Source: Acidobacteriota bacterium (GTDB lineage: Bacteria > Acidobacteriota > Terriglobia > Terriglobales > Acidobacteriaceae). Taken from it: a stretch of DNA of 19,638 bases. Made by a program: the position numbers and the translations under genes. Position 1 is the first letter of the stretch. Every line of letters starts with the position of its first letter. The notes beneath the pieces were generated by a model. It ran no database searches. It was not told the origin of the DNA and worked only from the letters and a program-made list of their open reading frames with translations. Shown here in pieces: positions 1,771 to 18,075 of the stretch. The stretch lies in contig JAJXXG010000321.1 in the NCBI GenBank assembly GCA_021781255.1, positions 1-19,638 on the forward strand. Reading direction: 5' to 3'.

Positions 1771-2214
1771 GTTGGCCTCCTTGCCGCTTATATCCCTGTA
1801 CGCTTTGATTCCTGCCTGGTGCAGAGGAAATCAAACGTCGATTTGATGCCGTCATAAAGCGCTGCAACCCGCGCCAAGTCATGTGCCCGATGCAGCGCGC
1901 AACTCGGGGAAGCTGCCTGCTGCAAAAAGACGCTCACTTGTCCTATCGGCAGCGAACGCCGATTCAACAGGAGGCGCGCCGATTGCCTAGGTCTTTGACC
2001 GCGTGAATTTGTTTCTTGAGTGCATGCTTTCCCAGGTCTCAAAATCGAGACCTGGGGCACCCAGAGTTGGTACGACTTCAAGCGGTCAAATACCTAGTGA
2101 AGCGCGGGATTCAGCCGATGGAGATTCTGAAGGGGCGACATGATGCGTGTCTGTCGCCTTTTGCACGGCGGCGCGGCCCTCAGCCGGGCCGCCATCTGCC
2201 ATGGAGAGAATCCT
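1771..2214. other. 444-base divergent intergenic region with palindromes
   Basis: No convincing gene is present; the short open frames here lack good start contexts and recognisable motifs. It separates the leftward M50 protease gene from the rightward EAL-HDOD gene, so it must hold both promoters. A CTTATA on the plus strand at 1787-1792 (TATAAG in the leftward direction) could be a -10 for the protease gene, but no good -35 accompanies it. An inverted repeat ATCAAA-N6-TTTGAT lies at 1830-1847 and could be an operator. A perfect 10-bp-arm palindrome lies at 2031-2056 and is listed separately. Confidence 0.6.
2031..2062. repeat. REP-like palindrome, copy 1
   Basis: CCCAGGTCTC (2031-2040) and GAGACCTGGG (2047-2056) are perfect inverted 10-mers around a 6-base loop, followed by GCACCC. 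The same CCCAGGTCTC core recurs at 10973 with a variant right arm, and the TGGGGCAC end recurs at 12010-12015. This points to a dispersed palindromic repeat family rather than a terminator. No gene on either strand ends here. Confidence 0.7.
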
Positions 2215-3453
2215 ATGTCTCAACAAGCCATCGAGGAAGCCGTCGAGCCGGTCCTGTACGCGACCCGCCTGCCGATTCTTGCCGCCAGTCAAAAGGTCAT
2301 CGGGTACAAGCTTCTATTCAGAGCGAGTATTCAGAGCTATCTGGCCGGCAGCGGTCCAGGCGACGCCAGCCGCGCCGCGATTGATGTGTCCAGCCTGCTG
2401 GGTCTGACGACCCTTTGTGATAACCGCCTTGCTTTCATCAGCTGCGGGCAGGATATCCTGGTCGAAAATTATCTCCGGCTCCTTCCGCCGGAAAAGCTGG
2501 TTGCGGAAATCGAAAAGGCTGTCGCGCCCGATGACGAAGTGCGGCAGGCTTGCAGCCGATTGAAGGATGCCGGCTGCAAGATTGCTCTGGGCGACTTCGC
2601 GCTCGAAGACGAGCGAGCGCCGTTGGCGGACTTCGCCGATTTCATCAAGGTGGATCTGCAGGGCGCGTCCCGTGACGATGCCGCCACGATTGTTGCCCGT
2701 TATCGCGGGAAAGACTGCCGCATGGTGGCCGAAAACGTGGAGACGCGCGAGGACTTCGAGCTGGCGAAGGAAGCCGGCTTTCGCTATTTTCAAGGATATT
2801 TTTTTCGCAAGCCGGAGAAACTGCGCGCGCGGGGCGTGTCGTCCAACCTGGCGATCTGCCTGCAACTGCTCAAGGCTGTCTGCAAGCCGGTCATGGACTG
2901 GCAGGAAGTGGAGGACATCGTCAAGCGCGATGCGGCGATCTATTACCGCCTTCTGCGCTACCTGAACTCAGCCGCGCTCGGCCTTCGCGGCCAGGTGCGT
3001 TCGGTCCGTCAGGCGCTGACGATTCTGGGCGAGGAGCATTTTCGCCGCTGGTGCAGGCTTGCGCTCATCCTGGATGTGTCGCAGAACCAGCCGTCGGATT
3101 TGATGCTCTCTGCGCTCGTGCGCGCCCGCTTCGGCGAGTTGCTCGGCGCGCGCATCGAACATGGCGACTCCGACCTGTTTCTGCTCGGTCTCTTGTCTTT
3201 GATGGATGCGATTCTTGAGATGCCCATGGGCACGCTGCTTGAAGAGCTGCCGCTGGACCCTGAGAGCAATATGCTCCTGCTGGGCCACGCAGGCCGGCTC
3301 GCACCGATCTACACGCTCATCTTTGCAGTGGAAGCGGGCTCATGGGGCGTCGTCGTCAAGGTCTGCCGGCAGTTGGGCCTGGAAGAGCAATTTGTGGCGG
3401 ACTCGTATCGCGAGGCCATGGAGTGGGCTCAGGCGATTGCCGCCAGCGCCTGA
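2215..3453 (+). CDS. EAL-HDOD signalling protein with degenerate EAL motif
   Basis: A 412-aa cytoplasmic protein of the YuxH-type EAL + HDOD architecture. The EAL-like domain spans about residues 15-205: YKLLFR (31-36) replaces the EAL-type ELLFR, GDFAL is at 126-130, IKVDLQG at 144-150, VAENVET at 171-177 and QGYFFRKP at 193-200. The metal-binding Glu of the EAL motif is Lys32, so cyclic-di-GMP hydrolysis is unlikely. A binding or scaffold role is my inference. The HDOD domain (about 205-400) has the family pattern LLRYLNSAALGLRG (246-259) followed by ALTILG. I chose the ATG at 2215 because GGAGAG lies 6 bases upstream; an in-frame ATG at 2140 would add 25 unlike residues. It converges with idh, 17 bases away. 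Confidence 0.85.
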   Translation: MSQQAIEEAVEPVLYATRLPILAASQKVIGYKLLFRASIQSYLAGSGPGDASRAAIDVSSLLGLTTLCDNRLAFISCGQDILVENYLRLLPPEKLVAEIEKAVAPDDEVRQACSRLKDAGCKIALGDFALEDERAPLADFADFIKVDLQGASRDDAATIVARYRGKDCRMVAENVETREDFELAKEAGFRYFQGYFFRKPEKLRARGVSSNLAICLQLLKAVCKPVMDWQEVEDIVKRDAAIYYRLLRYLNSAALGLRGQVRSVRQALTILGEEHFRRWCRLALILDVSQNQPSDLMLSALVRARFGELLGARIEHGDSDLFLLGLLSLMDAILEMPMGTLLEELPLDPESNMLLLGHAGRLAPIYTLIFAVEAGSWGVVVKVCRQLGLEEQFVADSYREAMEWAQAIAASA

Positions 3454-11015: not shown

Positions 11016-11858
11016 TCAAGGATGGGGGCTGCCGTTTGCGCGGAGGAGGTCTTCGACGTCTTCCATCTTGTCGGTGATGAGATTGAGTTTTTGCGAGAGC
11101 GCCTGGATGCCGGCTTCGGCGCGGCGGTTGACATCAAAGTCGAGCTCGCTGCGAAGGCGGTCTTTGGTGTCCTGGCGGTTCTGGCTCATCATGATGACCG
11201 GCGCCTGAATGGAAGCGAGCATGGAGAGAAACAGGTTGAGCAGGATGAAAGGGTAGGGGTCCCATGCGCGGCCTTTGAGGATGATGTTGACGCTTGAGTA
11301 CGCAATGAGGACAACGGCGAAGAGGATGATGAAGTTCCAGGAGCCGCCGAAGCGCGCGACTCCGTCGGCGACGCGCTCGCCAAACGTGGCTTCTGCTTCG
11401 ATGACCTCGTTGGGGTTGCGGCTGGCGCGCAGTTGAATGAGCCTCTGTGATGCGTGAAACTGGCGGCCGAGCACGGAGAGCATGTTGAGGCCGGCCATGG
11501 GCTTGCGCTGCAAGAGGGTGGCAATGTCGTCGCGGTCCAGTTCGACGCAGACGGTGTCTTCCATGGCCATGGCATTGGTCTGATGGGGCGTCTGGTCGAG
11601 CATGGAGGCGAATCCGAAGAAGCCGCCGTGGTCGGGCTCGTCAATCAGGACCTCCTGCTGGTCCTCATCGACGGTGGTCACGCGGACGCTGCCGGACATG
11701 AGGATGTAGGCCTGCTGCGATGCTTCGCCAATTTTGAAGATGCGCTGGCGGGCGGTGAACTGCTTCAGGTCGACCTGCGCGGCGAGAACGGCGAGTTCGT
11801 CGTCGTCGAGCAGTTCGAAAAGGGGGACGTGCTTGAGTTCCTCAGGATCGCAGGGCAT
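11016..11858 (-). CDS. Cyclic-nucleotide-binding-fold plus DUF1003 membrane protein
   Basis: A 280-aa membrane protein. Residues about 10-135 form a CAP/Crp-type nucleotide-binding fold (FKIGEASQQAYILMSGSVRV at 41-60). In the phosphate-binding cassette, GGFFGFASMLDQTPHQTN (78-95), the usual Glu is Phe83 and the usual Arg is His92, so ordinary cAMP/cGMP binding is doubtful. Residues about 158-248 are a DUF1003 domain with two transmembrane helices (174-193, 203-224) and the charged SQNRQDTKDRLRSELDFDVN motif. The C-terminus is a short helix. I chose the ATG at 11858 because GAGG lies 7 bases upstream; a GTG four codons earlier is the alternative. Function is unknown; a membrane-bound sensor is the simplest reading. 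Confidence 0.8.
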   Translation of the reverse strand: MPCDPEELKHVPLFELLDDDELAVLAAQVDLKQFTARQRIFKIGEASQQAYILMSGSVRVTTVDEDQQEVLIDEPDHGGFFGFASMLDQTPHQTNAMAMEDTVCVELDRDDIATLLQRKPMAGLNMLSVLGRQFHASQRLIQLRASRNPNEVIEAEATFGERVADGVARFGGSWNFIILFAVVLIAYSSVNIILKGRAWDPYPFILLNLFLSMLASIQAPVIMMSQNRQDTKDRLRSELDFDVNRRAEAGIQALSQKLNLITDKMEDVEDLLRANGSPHP

Positions 11859-11880
11859 AGGTGACCTCACTTTGGAGACG

Positions 11881-13383: not shown

Positions 13384-15510
13384 TCAGTCCCCGGCGACGG
13401 GCTCGGCGGGTTGCTGGTTGCGGTTGATGGGGCTGGCCGCGTTGTTGCTGGCTGGGCGGATGGAGTCGAGCGAGACCAGGCCTTCGACGGGCTTTTCGCC
13501 GAGGACGTGTTCGCGGTAGAGCTTGGCCATGCGGGCGTTTTCCGCATCCGCCTTTACCTTGTCCGCAACGGTCTGGTTGCGGGCGCGGAGTTTCTCTTCG
13601 CGGGCGTTCTTGGCGATGCCGAGGTTGTCGAGCGTGTGGTTGGCCTCGGAGTTGACGTGCTCCATGTTGAGAGCCAGGTCGTGGCCGACGTGGGTCATGC
13701 CGACCTTTTTGCCGCCGGCGAAGATTTCGTGGCGGCCGTGCTCCTCATACCACTTGGTGAGGGTGGCGGTCATGTGCATCTTCTCAATGATGTTGCGCCA
13801 GCCGATGCCGGTGTTGTAAGCGCAGAAGCTGATTTCGCCTTCCTGCGTGGCGTAGGGAATGATGCACTGCTCGGTGCGGCGGAAGTCGTAGTTGAAGAGA
13901 TCCTGGAACCACATGCCGGCGATGAAGAGGAAGTTCCAGCGGTCGGAACGGCGCTTCTCGATGTCGGCCATGGTGCGGTCGCCCTTGACGCTGCCGTAAT
14001 CCTTGCCGGTGGCGTTGAAGGTCTTGTCCATCTTCTTGAGCATGTCGGTAATCTTGAAGTGGGTAGGCGACTGAAAGGGGTCGTAGTTGCGCAGCAGCGC
14101 CAGGCCGAAGCCGAGGACGGACAGCATCTTGCCGCGGGCGGCATCGTTGATCTTGGCCAGGTCCTTGGCGACCTTGTCCATGTTGAGGAAGGCGGTGACG
14201 GGCGCGGCTTCCTTGGTTTCCTTGTCGATCATGAGGGCCATGCCGATGCCGCAGTTGGGATGGCAGCCGCAGGAGAGCTGACCCCACTCGGCGGTGGGCC
14301 CGTGAATGAGGTCGGCCCAGTCAGAGAATGTGCTCATGAAGCTGATGGGGAACCAGTCGCGCGCGGGCTCGCCGAGGCCGCACTGCTTCTTGATGTCGTG
14401 GGCCATGTGGCTGAGCGTGTAGCGCTGGGCGAAGCGGCGCTCGTCGGTGATGTCCTCGTCGCGGCCGGTGAAGCTGACGGGCTGGAAGCTGAGGAAGCTG
14501 ATCTTCTTGGGGTTGTCGAGGGCGAACTGAATGATGTGGCCCACCTGCTCGTTGTTGATGCCGTTGATGATGGTGGTGACCGGGACGATGTCCACGCCGG
14601 CTTCGTGCAGGTTGTTGATGGCCTGCAGTTTGACGTCGAACAGGTTGCCGACCTTGCGGTGCGAGTTGGCGGCGTTGCCGATGCCGTCGAACTGGAGGTA
14701 GACGTAGCGGAGGCCGGCCTCGGCGGCTGCGCGGCACAGCTCCTTGCTCTTGGCGAACTCGATGCCGTTGGAAGCGGCCTGGACGCTGTTGTAGCCGACC
14801 TTGCGCGAGTAGGCGATGGCGTCAAGGAAGTAAGGCGAGAGCGTGGGCTCGCCGCCGGAGAACTGGACGCTCATCTGCCGTTTTGGCTTGATGGTGATCG
14901 CGTTGTCCAGCATGGTCTTGATTTCTTCCCAGGTGAGTTCGTGGACGAAGCCGACCTGGTTGGCGTCCATGAAGCAGGGGTCGCACATCATGTTGCAGCG
15001 GTTGGTGAGGTCGATGGTAAGGACCGAGCCGCGGCCGTGGGTAACGGTGGAGGTGCCGTGCTTGTGAAGCTTCTCGTCGTTGTGGGCGCGGATGTCGCGG
15101 CCGGGGAAGCTCTCCTCAAGATGCTTGAAGAAGGCCGAGTCGATGGACATCAGGTCTTCAAAGTGGCCGTGCTTGGGGCAGTCCTTGACCATGAGGATCT
15201 TGCCGTCGCGCTCAATGATCTGGGCCTTGATTTCGCCGACTTTTTCGTTGAGCAGGACTTCATGGGGCAGCTTGCCATCGAGGATCTGCTTGCGGATCTC
15301 GGGAACGCACTTGGGGCAAAGCGAGTCCGTGGTGCGCGGCCAGCCGAGCGGGGGCTTCTCCTTCTGATAGCTCTTGAGCAGGGGCTTGTCGCTCCACTTG
15401 GGCGTGAACGACGGGTTGGGGCTGATACGGTTCAGCCGCTCATAGACAACCCATGCGCCCTTGGCCGCGTAGACGGCGGCTTTCTCGGCGTACTTGATGG
15501 CTTTGGACAT
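13384..15510 (-). CDS. Radical SAM protein, Tes/membrane-spanning lipid synthase-like
   Basis: A 708-aa radical SAM enzyme. CNMMCDPC (172-179) is the CxxxCxxC site for the SAM-cleaving 4Fe-4S cluster, and FSGGEPT (217-223) is the SAM-binding GGE motif. Upstream lie SLCPKC (63-68) and DCPKHG (110-115). Downstream are SCGCHPNCG (413-421), then Cys549 in RTEQCIIPYA and Cys563 in ISFCAYN. This order of N-terminal CPxC, CPxHG, radical SAM core, CxCxxxC and PFCxYN-like end matches tetraether lipid synthases (Tes) and the related bacterial MSS proteins, which join two lipid chains tail to tail. In acidobacteria the expected product is iso-diabolic acid, the core of branched tetraethers. AAGGAGA lies 9 bases before the ATG at 15510. 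The last 100 residues are helical/charged, then disordered. Product assignment is inference. Confidence 0.8.
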   Translation of the reverse strand: MSKAIKYAEKAAVYAAKGAWVVYERLNRISPNPSFTPKWSDKPLLKSYQKEKPPLGWPRTTDSLCPKCVPEIRKQILDGKLPHEVLLNEKVGEIKAQIIERDGKILMVKDCPKHGHFEDLMSIDSAFFKHLEESFPGRDIRAHNDEKLHKHGTSTVTHGRGSVLTIDLTNRCNMMCDPCFMDANQVGFVHELTWEEIKTMLDNAITIKPKRQMSVQFSGGEPTLSPYFLDAIAYSRKVGYNSVQAASNGIEFAKSKELCRAAAEAGLRYVYLQFDGIGNAANSHRKVGNLFDVKLQAINNLHEAGVDIVPVTTIINGINNEQVGHIIQFALDNPKKISFLSFQPVSFTGRDEDITDERRFAQRYTLSHMAHDIKKQCGLGEPARDWFPISFMSTFSDWADLIHGPTAEWGQLSCGCHPNCGIGMALMIDKETKEAAPVTAFLNMDKVAKDLAKINDAARGKMLSVLGFGLALLRNYDPFQSPTHFKITDMLKKMDKTFNATGKDYGSVKGDRTMADIEKRRSDRWNFLFIAGMWFQDLFNYDFRRTEQCIIPYATQEGEISFCAYNTGIGWRNIIEKMHMTATLTKWYEEHGRHEIFAGGKKVGMTHVGHDLALNMEHVNSEANHTLDNLGIAKNAREEKLRARNQTVADKVKADAENARMAKLYREHVLGEKPVEGLVSLDSIRPASNNAASPINRNQQPAEPVAGD

Positions 15511-15756
15511 GTTGTGCGCTCTCCTTGATCGATATTTACCCGCGGTGGTCACTTGCCCGGGCTCGCGCCAGCCGCGTTAGGGGTAGGGCTGAACGCAGAA
15601 AATTCATCCCAAGGTTAACCTTTCAGCCCGGTCAGCCCAATCCTGGAGCAGCGAACGGCGATATGTGCGCCTGAATGGGGATGATGGGGAAGTGAACGGG
15701 TCTACCAGGCGGGAGCCGGAGGCGGGGTCTTCGTATTGATTTGGAATGGTTTATCA

Positions 15757-16716
15757 CTATGGTTCGGGGCTGCCGGTGGTGGCGACCTGGTTGATGATGC
15801 GCTGGACGAGGACGATGCGGACGTGGATGCGTCGGGCTACGTCGGGGAGGAACTCGGTGATGAAGTTATCAATGGGCGCCGTGGCCAGGCCGGTGGCATA
15901 GCGCGACGCGGTTGCGGTGCCGTTGGTTTGCAGGCCCGGCACGTAGAGATTAACGATCTCGTTTTCAATCCCGGAGCCCAACAGGTTGGCATAGTTCAAC
16001 ATGCCCTTGCCGTTGTCGCCCTGGGTCCAGGCGATCTGGACGACGGCATGGAGGGCGCGGCGCGGAATGGAGGCTTTGGGCATGCGGTGGTAATGCGGAT
16101 CCTGGTGCGTGATGGACGGGATGAGAAACGTGCCGAAGACCTCGCTCGTCACGTCTTCGGCGTAACTGACGCCGACGTAGCGGCCGAAGCCGGGCATGCC
16201 GGGGCCGTAAGGGGAATGAGCGTCCGAGCCGACGGAGATGCCGGCGTTGCCTGCGATGGTGACGGCGTTGAAGGGGTCGAGGAGGTTGCGTACGGCGAGG
16301 CGCGCTTTTTCCTTTGGCGTCAGCGGCTTGACATCAGGTCCAGTGAGAAAGCGAGCAAACCAGTTTTTGGAGGGCGGGCACTTGGGCGGCGTGGCCTGGA
16401 CGCCTGGGTTGGCGGCGGTGGCTCCTGACTCTGCGCCCCCGGGAGCGAGGGGCTTTGCAGAAGCGACGGCAGCGGACGGAGTTGCAGGCGCGGCTTTGCA
16501 GGGCTGGGTTGCTCCGGTTCCATTTTGCGCCGGGGGCTGGGTCTGGGGCTTTGGCGCTTCCGGCAAGGGCTGCTCAGGTGGAGTGGGCGCGCTCTGCGCC
16601 CAGGCCGCGGCAGAGATGGGCAGGAAGACGGGGAGAAGCGCGAGCGCGAGGCGGTATCGTCCCGTCGGGTGAAGGGCGCTGCTTGATGGGTTGTCATCCT
16701 TTCTCAGTTTCAGCAA
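15757..16716 (-). CDS. Exported Pro/Ala-linker protein with an acidobacterial-type domain
   Basis: A 319-aa exported protein of unknown function. The signal peptide includes ALALLPVFLPISAAAWA (about 24-40), cleaved before QSAP. Residues about 42-115 are a Pro/Ala/Gln-rich linker containing two cysteines (one in TQPCKAA, one in PKCPPS). The conserved part (about 130-315) includes LTPKEKARLAVRNLLDPFN, GISVGSDAHSPYGPG, FLIPSITHQDPHYHRMP and NEIVNLYVPG. I know this domain only as a recurrent, uncharacterised acidobacterial family. Its Gly/Tyr-rich repeats could suit an outer-membrane or periplasmic location. The start is a TTG at 16716 with GAGGG 8 bases upstream; a Met start is not available in this frame before the signal peptide. 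It lies 246 bases upstream of the radical SAM gene, same strand. Confidence 0.7.
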   Translation of the reverse strand: MLKLRKDDNPSSSALHPTGRYRLALALLPVFLPISAAAWAQSAPTPPEQPLPEAPKPQTQPPAQNGTGATQPCKAAPATPSAAVASAKPLAPGGAESGATAANPGVQATPPKCPPSKNWFARFLTGPDVKPLTPKEKARLAVRNLLDPFNAVTIAGNAGISVGSDAHSPYGPGMPGFGRYVGVSYAEDVTSEVFGTFLIPSITHQDPHYHRMPKASIPRRALHAVVQIAWTQGDNGKGMLNYANLLGSGIENEIVNLYVPGLQTNGTATASRYATGLATAPIDNFITEFLPDVARRIHVRIVLVQRIINQVATTGSPEP

Positions 16717-17029: not shown

Positions 17030-17257
17030 GTGAGCTCTTATCCTCCCCCAGGGCCCGGCGCAGGCCGCGTGAGCCAGCGCATTGAAGAAGCCATTGAACT
17101 GATTGAGTTGGAGCTGCGCCACGCCATCGCCTACGTGAATGATGCGGTGGTTCCGCAGGTGCGCAGCGAATCGATTACGGCGATGCGAAAGCTTTCGGAC
17201 AAATTGCGTAATCTGGCCGACCGCATCGACCAGCCCAGGGGCCCCGGTGGACAATGA
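17030..17257 (+). CDS. Small helical protein coupled to RlpA
   Basis: A 75-aa protein of unknown function. Residues about 14-68 are predicted to be almost continuous amphipathic helix (RIEEAIELIELELRHAI, then ITAMRKLSDKLRNLADRI), with Gly/Pro-rich ends. There is no signal peptide or membrane helix. The start is a GTG with GAGG 10 bases upstream. Its stop codon overlaps the start of rlpA (ATGA at 17254-17257), so translation of the two is probably coupled. The length recalls XseB, but the XseB signature is absent. A cytoplasmic helper of cell-wall processing is only a guess from context. Confidence 0.65.
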   Translation: MSSYPPPGPGAGRVSQRIEEAIELIELELRHAIAYVNDAVVPQVRSESITAMRKLSDKLRNLADRIDQPRGPGGQ

Positions 17258-18075
17258 CTCGAGATGACGCGCAACGGCGCGGCCGGGTTCTGGCGGGCTG
17301 GGCGGGATTGGGGTTCGCGCTGCTGGTTGTGACCGGCTGCGGCCACCACAAGACCACAACGCAACTGCCCGCGCCGCAATCGGCTCCGCCCGAGATTCAG
17401 GCATCCACTCCCGAGACCGAGCAGCCGTCTCCCGCGTTGCAGCCGCCGGTGGAGACGGGGCGCATTACCATGACGCCTGTGCCGCGGGGCGGTGTGAGCG
17501 ATGAGGACCTGGACTACATTGCCACGCACCAGCCGATTCTTTCAGAAGAGGGCGATGCCACGTGGTATACCGCGCGCAAAGGACGCAGGGCCGCCAATGG
17601 CCAGGTGTTCAGCAACCGCGCCCTGACGGCGGCGCACCGCACGCTGCCGATGGGCTCGCTGATTGTGGTGACGAATCTGGAGAACGGGCAGTCGGCAGCA
17701 ATGCGCATCAGCGACCGCGGCCCGTTTGCTCCGGACAAGGTGATCGACCTGACGATTGCATCGGCCAAGGCGACGGGCGTTTATCGCATGGGCGTGGCAC
17801 GGGTGCGGATTGACGTGTATCGCACCCCGAAGCCGATAGACGAGGGCGGGCGGTGGTGCGTGCAGATTGGGGCATTCACGAGCGAGCGCAAGGCAGAGAA
17901 GCTCAAGGCGCAGCTTCTGCGCAAATATCCCGGCTCGCACGTAATCGACTTTGCCGGCGAGCACAGCTACTGGGTTCGCATCCGCCCGGAAGGAGATAAC
18001 CGGGAAGTGGCCGAGTCCATTGCGCGCCATGTGCATCCTTCTCAGGGCGACGCGTATCTGACGCGACTGGATTGA
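17254..18075 (+). CDS. rlpA: RlpA-family lipoprotein with SPOR domain
   Basis: A 273-aa lipoprotein that, in characterised relatives, cleaves denuded glycan strands at the division septum. The signal sequence ends in the lipobox VTGC with Cys29, followed by a Pro/Gln/Thr-rich linker to about residue 95. The double-psi beta-barrel domain (about 97-190) has GDATWYTARKGRRAANGQ (100-117), TAAHRTLPMGS (125-135) and RISDRGPF (151-158), so the catalytic His128 and Asp154 of lytic RlpA are both present. The SPOR domain (about 199-270, WCVQIGAF at 201-208) would bind denuded peptidoglycan. It overlaps the preceding small gene by four bases. It converges with the TldD-like gene, 23 bases away. Confidence 0.9.
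   Translation: MTRDDAQRRGRVLAGWAGLGFALLVVTGCGHHKTTTQLPAPQSAPPEIQASTPETEQPSPALQPPVETGRITMTPVPRGGVSDEDLDYIATHQPILSEEGDATWYTARKGRRAANGQVFSNRALTAAHRTLPMGSLIVVTNLENGQSAAMRISDRGPFAPDKVIDLTIASAKATGVYRMGVARVRIDVYRTPKPIDEGGRWCVQIGAFTSERKAEKLKAQLLRKYPGSHVIDFAGEHSYWVRIRPEGDNREVAESIARHVHPSQGDAYLTRLD

What the first reader, a model, noticed from the sequence alone, without database searches (positions are those of the whole stretch)
13384..15510. Candidate membrane-spanning lipid (tetraether/iso-diabolic acid) synthase
The cysteine layout (CPKC 65-68, CPKHG 111-115, CNMMCDPC 172-179, CGCHPNC 414-420, Cys549, Cys563) matches the tetraether synthase Tes and bacterial MSS families better than any other radical SAM group I know. 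It would join two acyl tails by a C-C bond between chain ends. At 708 aa it is about 200 residues longer than archaeal Tes as I remember it. The extra length includes a hydrophobic segment near 463-475 and a charged/disordered C-terminal tail from about 585, which could tune membrane access. No ether-lipid genes adjoin it.
Basis: partly seen in the sequence, partly recalled or inferred. Interest (0 to 1): 0.8.

Follow-up and report, generated by a model that had tools for sequence, protein, structure and literature searches.

The report
Divergent tetraether-synthase-like enzyme of Acidobacteria
A soil bacterium carries a radical enzyme shaped like the archaeal enzyme that welds lipid tails together; nearly every sampled genome of its bacterial class has it, so it is a strong, testable candidate for the enzyme that makes their membrane-spanning lipid, iso-diabolic acid.

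The parts
13384..15510 (-). Coding sequence of the 708-aa radical SAM protein (P0002), ATG at 15510, stop at 13386-13384
   Evidence: an in-frame GTG at 15552 would add 14 aa
15427..15504 (-). N-terminal amphipathic helix (residues 3-28), candidate membrane-surface anchor; not in MJ0619
   Evidence: AF2 model; hydrophobic moment 0.48, no transmembrane-like segment
15145..15339 (-). Rubredoxin-like metal ribbon (residues 58-122; ligands C65, C68, C111, H114)
   Evidence: PF23545 E 1e-13; maps to MJ0619 C9/C12/C33/H36
14998..15105 (-). Region 136-171 where Tes binds its N-terminal [4Fe-4S]; ligand motif absent here, conserved H151 and mostly H149-x-H-G instead
   Evidence: mapping; CX3CX2CX2H in 31 of 31 Tes-type rows, 0 of 34 of this clade; 0 of 361; 12 of 121 close relatives have some Cys in the region
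14974..14997 (-). Radical SAM motif C172-X3-C176-X2-C179
   Evidence: PF04055 E 5e-19; invariant in the 79-row alignment
14251..14271 (-). C414-G-C416-H-P-N-C420: C420 is a probable C-terminal auxiliary cluster ligand; C414 is fixed in this clade
   Evidence: C420 = MJ0619 C338; C414 in 361 of 361 listed relatives but in only 4 of 31 Tes-type rows, L136 and L138-L140
13912..13914 (-). M533, equivalent of the labile cluster ligand Met439 of MJ0619
   Evidence: 361 of 361
13864..13866 (-). C549, probable C-terminal auxiliary cluster ligand (MJ0619 C455)
   Evidence: 361 of 361
13852..13854 (-). Y553, equivalent of active-site Tyr459 of MJ0619
   Evidence: 361 of 361
13822..13824 (-). C563, probable C-terminal auxiliary cluster ligand (MJ0619 C470)
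   Evidence: 360 of 361
13387..13725 (-). C-terminal extension (residues 596-708), folded to about 670 with helix 636-668, then a disordered tail
15757..16716 (-). Upstream co-oriented gene of unknown family (319 aa, signal-like N-terminus), often near the target in relatives
   Evidence: no Pfam match; homolog near the target in 29 of 80 loci at E 1e-5
17254..18075 (+). RlpA-like (DPBB + SPOR) gene, synteny marker of this locus
   Evidence: found in 25 of 57 relatives with >4 kb upstream and upstream of four of the seven Tes-linked copies

Best explanation
It is a membrane-surface radical SAM lipid-coupling enzyme of a divergent sister clade of Tes. Shown by sequence and model: Tes fold, radical SAM site, rubredoxin-like site, C-terminal [4Fe-4S] site with labile Met, SAM-loop residues. 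Inferred: reductive SAM cleavage makes a 5'-deoxyadenosyl radical that takes a hydrogen from a tail-end carbon of an iso-C15 acyl chain in a phospholipid; the carbon radical is parked on a sulfur of the C-terminal cluster, as reported for MJ0619; [quoted passage not shown] The N-terminal auxiliary cluster, on the protein surface in MJ0619, has been lost, so electron delivery may differ. Ether bonds are a separate step; where canonical Tes is present it is a second coupling enzyme.
Against: I found no biochemical or genetic test of any member. It misses the curated Tes cut-off and one Tes cluster. A core gene of the class would correlate with any trait universal in the class, and the expected absence from lineages without iso-diabolic acid was not tested. 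Bryobacterales/Solibacteraceae MAGs carry it (for example L070), yet Solibacter usitatus is reported to give no iso-diabolic acid while making brGDGTs (PMC10087280); whether S. usitatus itself has the clade was not checked. A Thermotoga-type Mss elsewhere in these genomes could not be excluded. 4 of 249 genomes have neither enzyme. G252, G075 and G117 are close kin, so the linkage cases are not 7 independent events. The Tes rows in the AF2 alignment could pull the model towards Tes.
Confidence: 0.7

Rival explanations
1. It couples lipid chains but at other positions or on other substrates: for example mid-chain cross-links (GMGT-like) or macrocycles within one lipid.
For: Same fold and C-terminal cluster site as Tes, so the class of chemistry is likely, but regiochemistry is not fixed by sequence; the clade differs from Tes at many positions (100/100 split, branch 1.63).
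Against: Gms, the known cross-linking enzyme, is a SPASM protein (PMC11186832, passages) and the target has no SPASM match up to E 0.01; the abundant lipid in these bacteria is tail-to-tail iso-diabolic acid.
Confidence: 0.12
2. Another enzyme (Thermotoga-type Mss or an unknown one) makes iso-diabolic acid, and this clade does a different radical reaction on lipids or cofactors, such as C5/C6 methylation or the pterin methylation of old annotations.
For: The clade misses both the Tes and TrsS curated cut-offs; databases still name members pterin dimethyltransferase; Mss homologs are reported in some Acidobacteria (11 of 97 Black Sea MAGs, against 17 of 97 for Tes homologs; PMC11868695).
Against: The catalytic-side residues of Tes are kept, including the labile Met; PMC9433317 could not corroborate the pterin role of MJ0619; linkage and partial replacement with canonical Tes.
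Confidence: 0.12
3. It is in effect a Tes that makes branched tetraethers from diethers.
For: Tes fold and profile kinship. E. aggregans is reported to make brGDGT (PMC8941075), has this clade's gene and a DUF2229 protein, and shows no Tes-profile match over the cut-off.
Against: Canonical Tes is a separate gene in 30 of 249 genomes, and one DUF2229 subtype tracks it (10 of 10 vs 0 of 51), not this clade; 7 of the 8 clade carriers searched have no DUF2229 match at 1e-5, so most of its work there cannot depend on that route to ethers.
Confidence: 0.06

Closest known systems
Tes / GDGT-MAS (MJ0619, PDB 7TOL/7TOM; NCBIfam NF045702)
   Different: 30% identity in the structural alignment, below the curated cut-off, no N-terminal cluster motif, fixed C414 and H151, N- and C-terminal extensions, separate clade
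Canonical-type Tes of Acidobacteriota (for example L081, L111-L140)
   Same: Often in the same genome and sometimes at the same locus
   Different: Keeps the N-terminal cluster motif (31 of 31), over the cut-off, patchy (30 of 249 Terriglobia), tracks a DUF2229 subtype
Mss of Thermotoga maritima (Sahonero-Canavesi 2022; known here only through passages of PMC11604127 and PMC13274423)
   Same: Reaction proposed for it: coupling of fatty acyl tails into diabolic acids; PMC13274423 reports that Mss models keep the catalytic architecture of Tes
   Different: T. maritima has no Tes-profile match at 1e-20, against 3e-95 for the target; no Mss sequence was available for a direct comparison
TrsS radical SAM (seleno)protein (NF045646)
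   Same: Second-best NCBIfam profile, 207 bits
   Different: Far below its cut-off of 490 and below the Tes score
Gms GMGT synthase
   Same: Radical SAM enzyme joining sp3 carbons of lipid chains (PMC11186832)
   Different: Gms has a SPASM domain; the target has no such Pfam match

Membership tests
Tes equivalog (NF045702) | Score above the curated cut-off of 450 bits | tested here: not met
   319.5 bits
Tes equivalog (NF045702) | Rubredoxin-like C-X2-C...C-X2-H | tested here: met
   C65, C68, C111, H114
Tes equivalog (NF045702) | N-terminal auxiliary [4Fe-4S] with CX3CX2C and a His | tested here: not met
   gap/H151/S154; motif in 0 of 361 listed relatives
Tes equivalog (NF045702) | Radical SAM CX3CX2C and SAM-loop Gln/Ser/Arg | tested here: met
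   C172/C176/C179, Q343/S346/R350
Tes equivalog (NF045702) | C-terminal [4Fe-4S] cysteines with labile Met; active-site Tyr | tested here: met
   C420/C549/C563, M533, Y553; which three Cys of MJ0619 are ligands is inferred from conservation
Tes equivalog (NF045702) | Whole-length fold of GDGT-MAS | tested here: met
Tes equivalog (NF045702) | Placement inside the clade that holds MJ0619 | tested here: not met
   Split 33 vs 31 rows, 100/100
Tes equivalog (NF045702) | Makes a C-C bond between lipid chain ends | not testable with these tools
   needs expression and lipid analysis
Mss (Thermotoga type) | Sequence clustering with experimentally shown Mss | not tested
   paper not held, no Mss sequence reached; only the indirect T. 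maritima control
Gms | C-terminal SPASM domain | tested here: not met
   no SPASM match up to E 0.01
TrsS (NF045646) | Score above the curated cut-off of 490 bits | tested here: not met
   207.1 bits

The most novel reading that the evidence does not exclude
This clade is the missing iso-diabolic acid synthase of Acidobacteriota: a bacterial sp3-sp3 lipid coupler that dispenses with one Tes cluster (a fixed His in its place), works on ester lipids as a core function of a whole class, and stands beside canonical Tes, which with a PlsA/Ger-like reductase subtype serves the abundant brGDGT tetraethers used in soil palaeothermometry. E. aggregans, a brGDGT producer with no canonical Tes, would then be the case where the clade plus another DUF2229 reductase yields small amounts of tetraether.
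Probability: 0.35. Interest if true: 0.8.

Novelty: new variant of a known kind. Interest (0 to 1): 0.6.

Why it matters
Iso-diabolic acid makes up a large share of acidobacterial membranes and is the likely building block of brGDGTs, which are widely used to reconstruct past soil temperature and pH. In the passages I saw, bacterial Tes homologs are only hypothesised to make them (PMC8941075, PMC11868695). A near-universal gene with a clean structural signature, distinct from canonical Tes, turns the question of which enzyme makes iso-diabolic acid into one expression or deletion experiment, and could let metagenomes separate two kinds of membrane-spanning-lipid producers.

Tried and rejected
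Rejected: a plus-strand reading (shadow ORF). Rejected: pterin methylase, because that label on MJ0619 could not be corroborated (PMC9433317). Rejected: a Gms-like SPASM enzyme. Rejected: a transmembrane segment at 463-475 (best 19-residue hydropathy in the whole protein 0.92).

Led nowhere: the window's own genome is not held, so its other Tes-type copies, if any, and its lipid genes are unknown. Led nowhere: obtaining an Mss sequence (paper not held; the passages give no usable Mss identifier). Led nowhere: an operon. Genes downstream of the target in the window were not found near the target in relatives, except HflX in 1 of 80 loci; the DegT query was cut out of frame and tested nothing, and loci end 10 kb from the target. 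The 1e-20 count also takes in some other radical SAM proteins: Bacillus subtilis and Thermus ring among the controls, and at 1e-10 all 14 controls ring. Absence of other families from the fold list is not evidence against them. Not in print, as far as searched: a test of an acidobacterial Tes-type enzyme (search listings; open-licence PMC papers only).

Rows dropped: from the tree I left out L093, L137 and L117_3411 (fragments); the 79-row alignment used 17 of the 121 P0002-group proteins and left out the same three; the counts cover the 120 best-listed hits of each plus P0002, not the roughly 8000 scored in each. Neighbour annotation in the Tes-linked loci covered ten ORFs from five of the seven loci.

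Full report
What is there. The finding's coordinates hold one open frame on the minus strand, ATG at 15510 to stop at 13384, 708 aa. The listed cysteines are at the listed positions. The annotated ORFs around it are unrelated (semialdehyde dehydrogenase, isocitrate/isopropylmalate dehydrogenase, NrdR, DegT aminotransferase, Hfq, an HflX-type GTPase, NUDIX, cNMP-DUF1003, an RlpA-like protein, TldD/PmbA); none is a known ether-lipid gene. The best-listed proteins are 93% (unnamed) and 92% identical (a Terracidiphilus MAG), and the nearest loci are Acidobacteriota MAGs.

Residue-level comparison. Lloyd et al. 2022 (PMC9433317: abstract, passages and part 1 of section 2 read) name residues of MJ0619. 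I rebuilt the chain from the printed alignment and checked 16 residues named in those passages; all agreed. Kept in the target: C9/C12/C33/H36 (C65/C68/C111/H114), the radical SAM cysteines (C172/C176/C179), Met439 (M533), Tyr459 (Y553), Gln268/Ser271/Arg275 (Q343/S346/R350), and C338/C455/C470 (C420/C549/C563). Not kept: the N-terminal auxiliary cluster ligands (C73 to gap, C77 to H151, C80 to S154). That C338, C455 and C470 are the cysteine ligands of the C-terminal cluster is my inference from conservation; so is H83 (T157 here) as the unnumbered histidine ligand.

The difference is a clade property. In a 66-row alignment of family members from Acidobacteriota, the N-terminal cluster motif is in 31 of 31 Tes-type rows and 0 of 34 rows of the target's type, and one row is a fragment that covers neither. 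Among 361 listed relatives (P0002 and 120 from each of three searches) none has the motif, 12 of the 121 closest have some cysteine in the region, HxHG is in 343, H151 in all, C414, C420, M533, C549 and Y553 in all, C416 and C563 in 360 each. C414 also occurs in 4 of 31 Tes-type rows. A maximum-likelihood tree of 64 rows separates the target's clade (33) from the Tes clade that holds MJ0619 (31) with 100/100 support and a long joining branch (1.63 plus 0.41). The program warns that some joins within it are between long branches.

Distribution. Of 297 Acidobacteriota genomes, 172 match the Tes profile at 1e-20 and 32 exceed the cut-off. In the class of Edaphobacter aggregans (Terriglobia by the titles of the loci), 245 of 249 genomes match at 1e-40 and 30 exceed the cut-off; searched with the target itself, 241 of 249 match at 1e-120. 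Of the eight without it, four carry a canonical Tes and four neither; three of those four give no match to the target at all and one a weak radical SAM match. Lacking the clade is commoner among Tes carriers (4 of 30) than others (4 of 219), Fisher p 0.009, not corrected for relatedness. Branches of the clade also occur in Pyrinomonadaceae/Blastocatellia and Polarisedimenticolia by source names of listed hits. T. maritima, a diabolic acid producer, has no Tes-profile match at 1e-20; at 1e-10 all 14 control genomes ring.

Linkage. In 26 Terriglobia genomes that hold both a canonical Tes and the clade, the two lie within 15 kb in 7 (G501 0.6 kb, G252 0.8 kb, G353 1.1 kb, G486 3.1 kb, G117 4.0 kb, G075 6.2 kb, G425 11.4 kb). 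By my arithmetic about 0.2 would be expected at random in 5-Mb genomes; G252, G075 and G117 form one subclade, so these are not seven events, and fragmented assemblies may hide others. In G252, G075, G117 and G486 an RlpA-like gene lies upstream, as in the window and in 25 of 57 close relatives with more than 4 kb upstream. The window gene thus sits at the locus where some other lineages keep a Tes next to it. Of ten neighbouring ORFs annotated, the recurrent ones are RlpA, DUF4440 and MutY-like proteins; a short-chain dehydrogenase and a second radical SAM protein each occur in 2 of the 7 loci, and an acyl-CoA dehydrogenase in one.

Ether step. DUF2229 proteins with an activase domain resemble PlsA/Ger in my recollection of its domains; T. 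maritima, which has the modified PlsA of PMC8788747 (passages), rings in this search. In 61 Terriglobia genomes all 10 canonical-Tes carriers have one, against 14 of 51 others; the subtype scoring above 180 bits is in 10 of 10 and 0 of 51 (the 180-bit line was drawn after seeing the scores, and relatedness is not corrected). One of the ten, G337, lacks the target's clade. Domains were checked in four proteins. In eight genomes carrying this gene only E. aggregans has a DUF2229 match at 1e-5, of the lower-scoring subtype, and it is the one of the eight that the passages I saw name as a brGDGT producer (PMC8941075). It shows no Tes match over the cut-off. So the presence of this clade does not predict the ether candidate, but in E. 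aggregans the clade is the best available coupling enzyme for its brGDGT as well.

Lipids. Iso-diabolic acid is 26.8-49.2% of fatty acids in five Occallatibacter, Terracidiphilus and Telmatobacter strains (PMC12935467, passages) and 11.8-30.4% in the six columns of the Edaphobacter table of PMC11354219 (passages). PMC13274423 (passages) cites iso-diabolic acid in acidobacterial subdivisions 1, 3, 4 and 6. Against this, S. usitatus is reported to give none while making brGDGTs (PMC10087280, passages).

Prior work. Zeng et al. 2022 (PMC8941075, passages) found one Tes homolog at 32% identity in E. aggregans and 40-42% homologs in Koribacter and Solibacter, and proposed a role in brGDGTs. From the identity values I infer that the first is the target's clade and the others canonical-type; I did not see their sequences. 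JGI names already call some members tetraether lipid synthase. What appears new here is the clade definition, the missing cluster, its near-universality in the class, its link with canonical Tes and the separate tracking of the ether candidate.

Mechanism and judgement. The catalytic side of Tes is complete, so sp3 C-C coupling with a cluster-bound intermediate is the most likely chemistry, on iso-branched acyl chains of mostly ester phospholipids, with membrane contact through the N-terminal amphipathic helix. Chemistry, substrate and product are inferred, not shown. Confidence 0.7.

Noticed in passing
L092 1198-3087 (- strand; genome of Acidicapsa dinghuensis, G002): A 629-aa paralog keeps the radical SAM and rubredoxin-like ligands but lacks the cysteines at the C414, C416, C420, C549 and C563 positions as well as the N-terminal cluster motif; an open frame with a long branch, possibly a new function. 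L093 in E. aggregans is a shorter relative (389 aa).
   Followed up: partly
L141, L142, L143, L163, L164, L165, L166: Canonical Tes and the target's clade lie at one locus; RlpA-like upstream in four, DUF4440-type and MutY-like genes nearby in several.
   Followed up: partly
G316, G322, G311, G333, G337, G339, G075, G117, G345, G324 (L167, L168 read; L170 fetched only): A DUF2229/BadF-type protein subtype (most frames about 1030-1100 aa) occurs in all ten canonical-Tes genomes and none of 51 others in the sample: a candidate ether-forming partner of bacterial Tes.
   Followed up: partly
L148/L149 (G135), L151/L152 (G197), L153/L154 (G111): Pyrinomonadaceae-like genomes carry two diverged copies of the clade, about 65% and 52% identical to the target.
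   Followed up: no
window 15757-16716, - strand: A 319-aa protein of no Pfam family with a signal-like N-terminus sits just upstream of and co-oriented with the target, with homologs near the target in 29 of 80 loci.
   Followed up: partly
window 2140-3453 + and 11016-11870 -: An EAL-HDOD protein and a cNMP-binding/DUF1003 fusion protein.
   Followed up: no
L045, L052, L072; protein P0162: Records titled Rhodanobacteraceae, Verrucomicrobia and Leptolyngbya carry acidobacterial-looking versions of this gene, which suggests mis-binned or contaminated assemblies.
   Followed up: no
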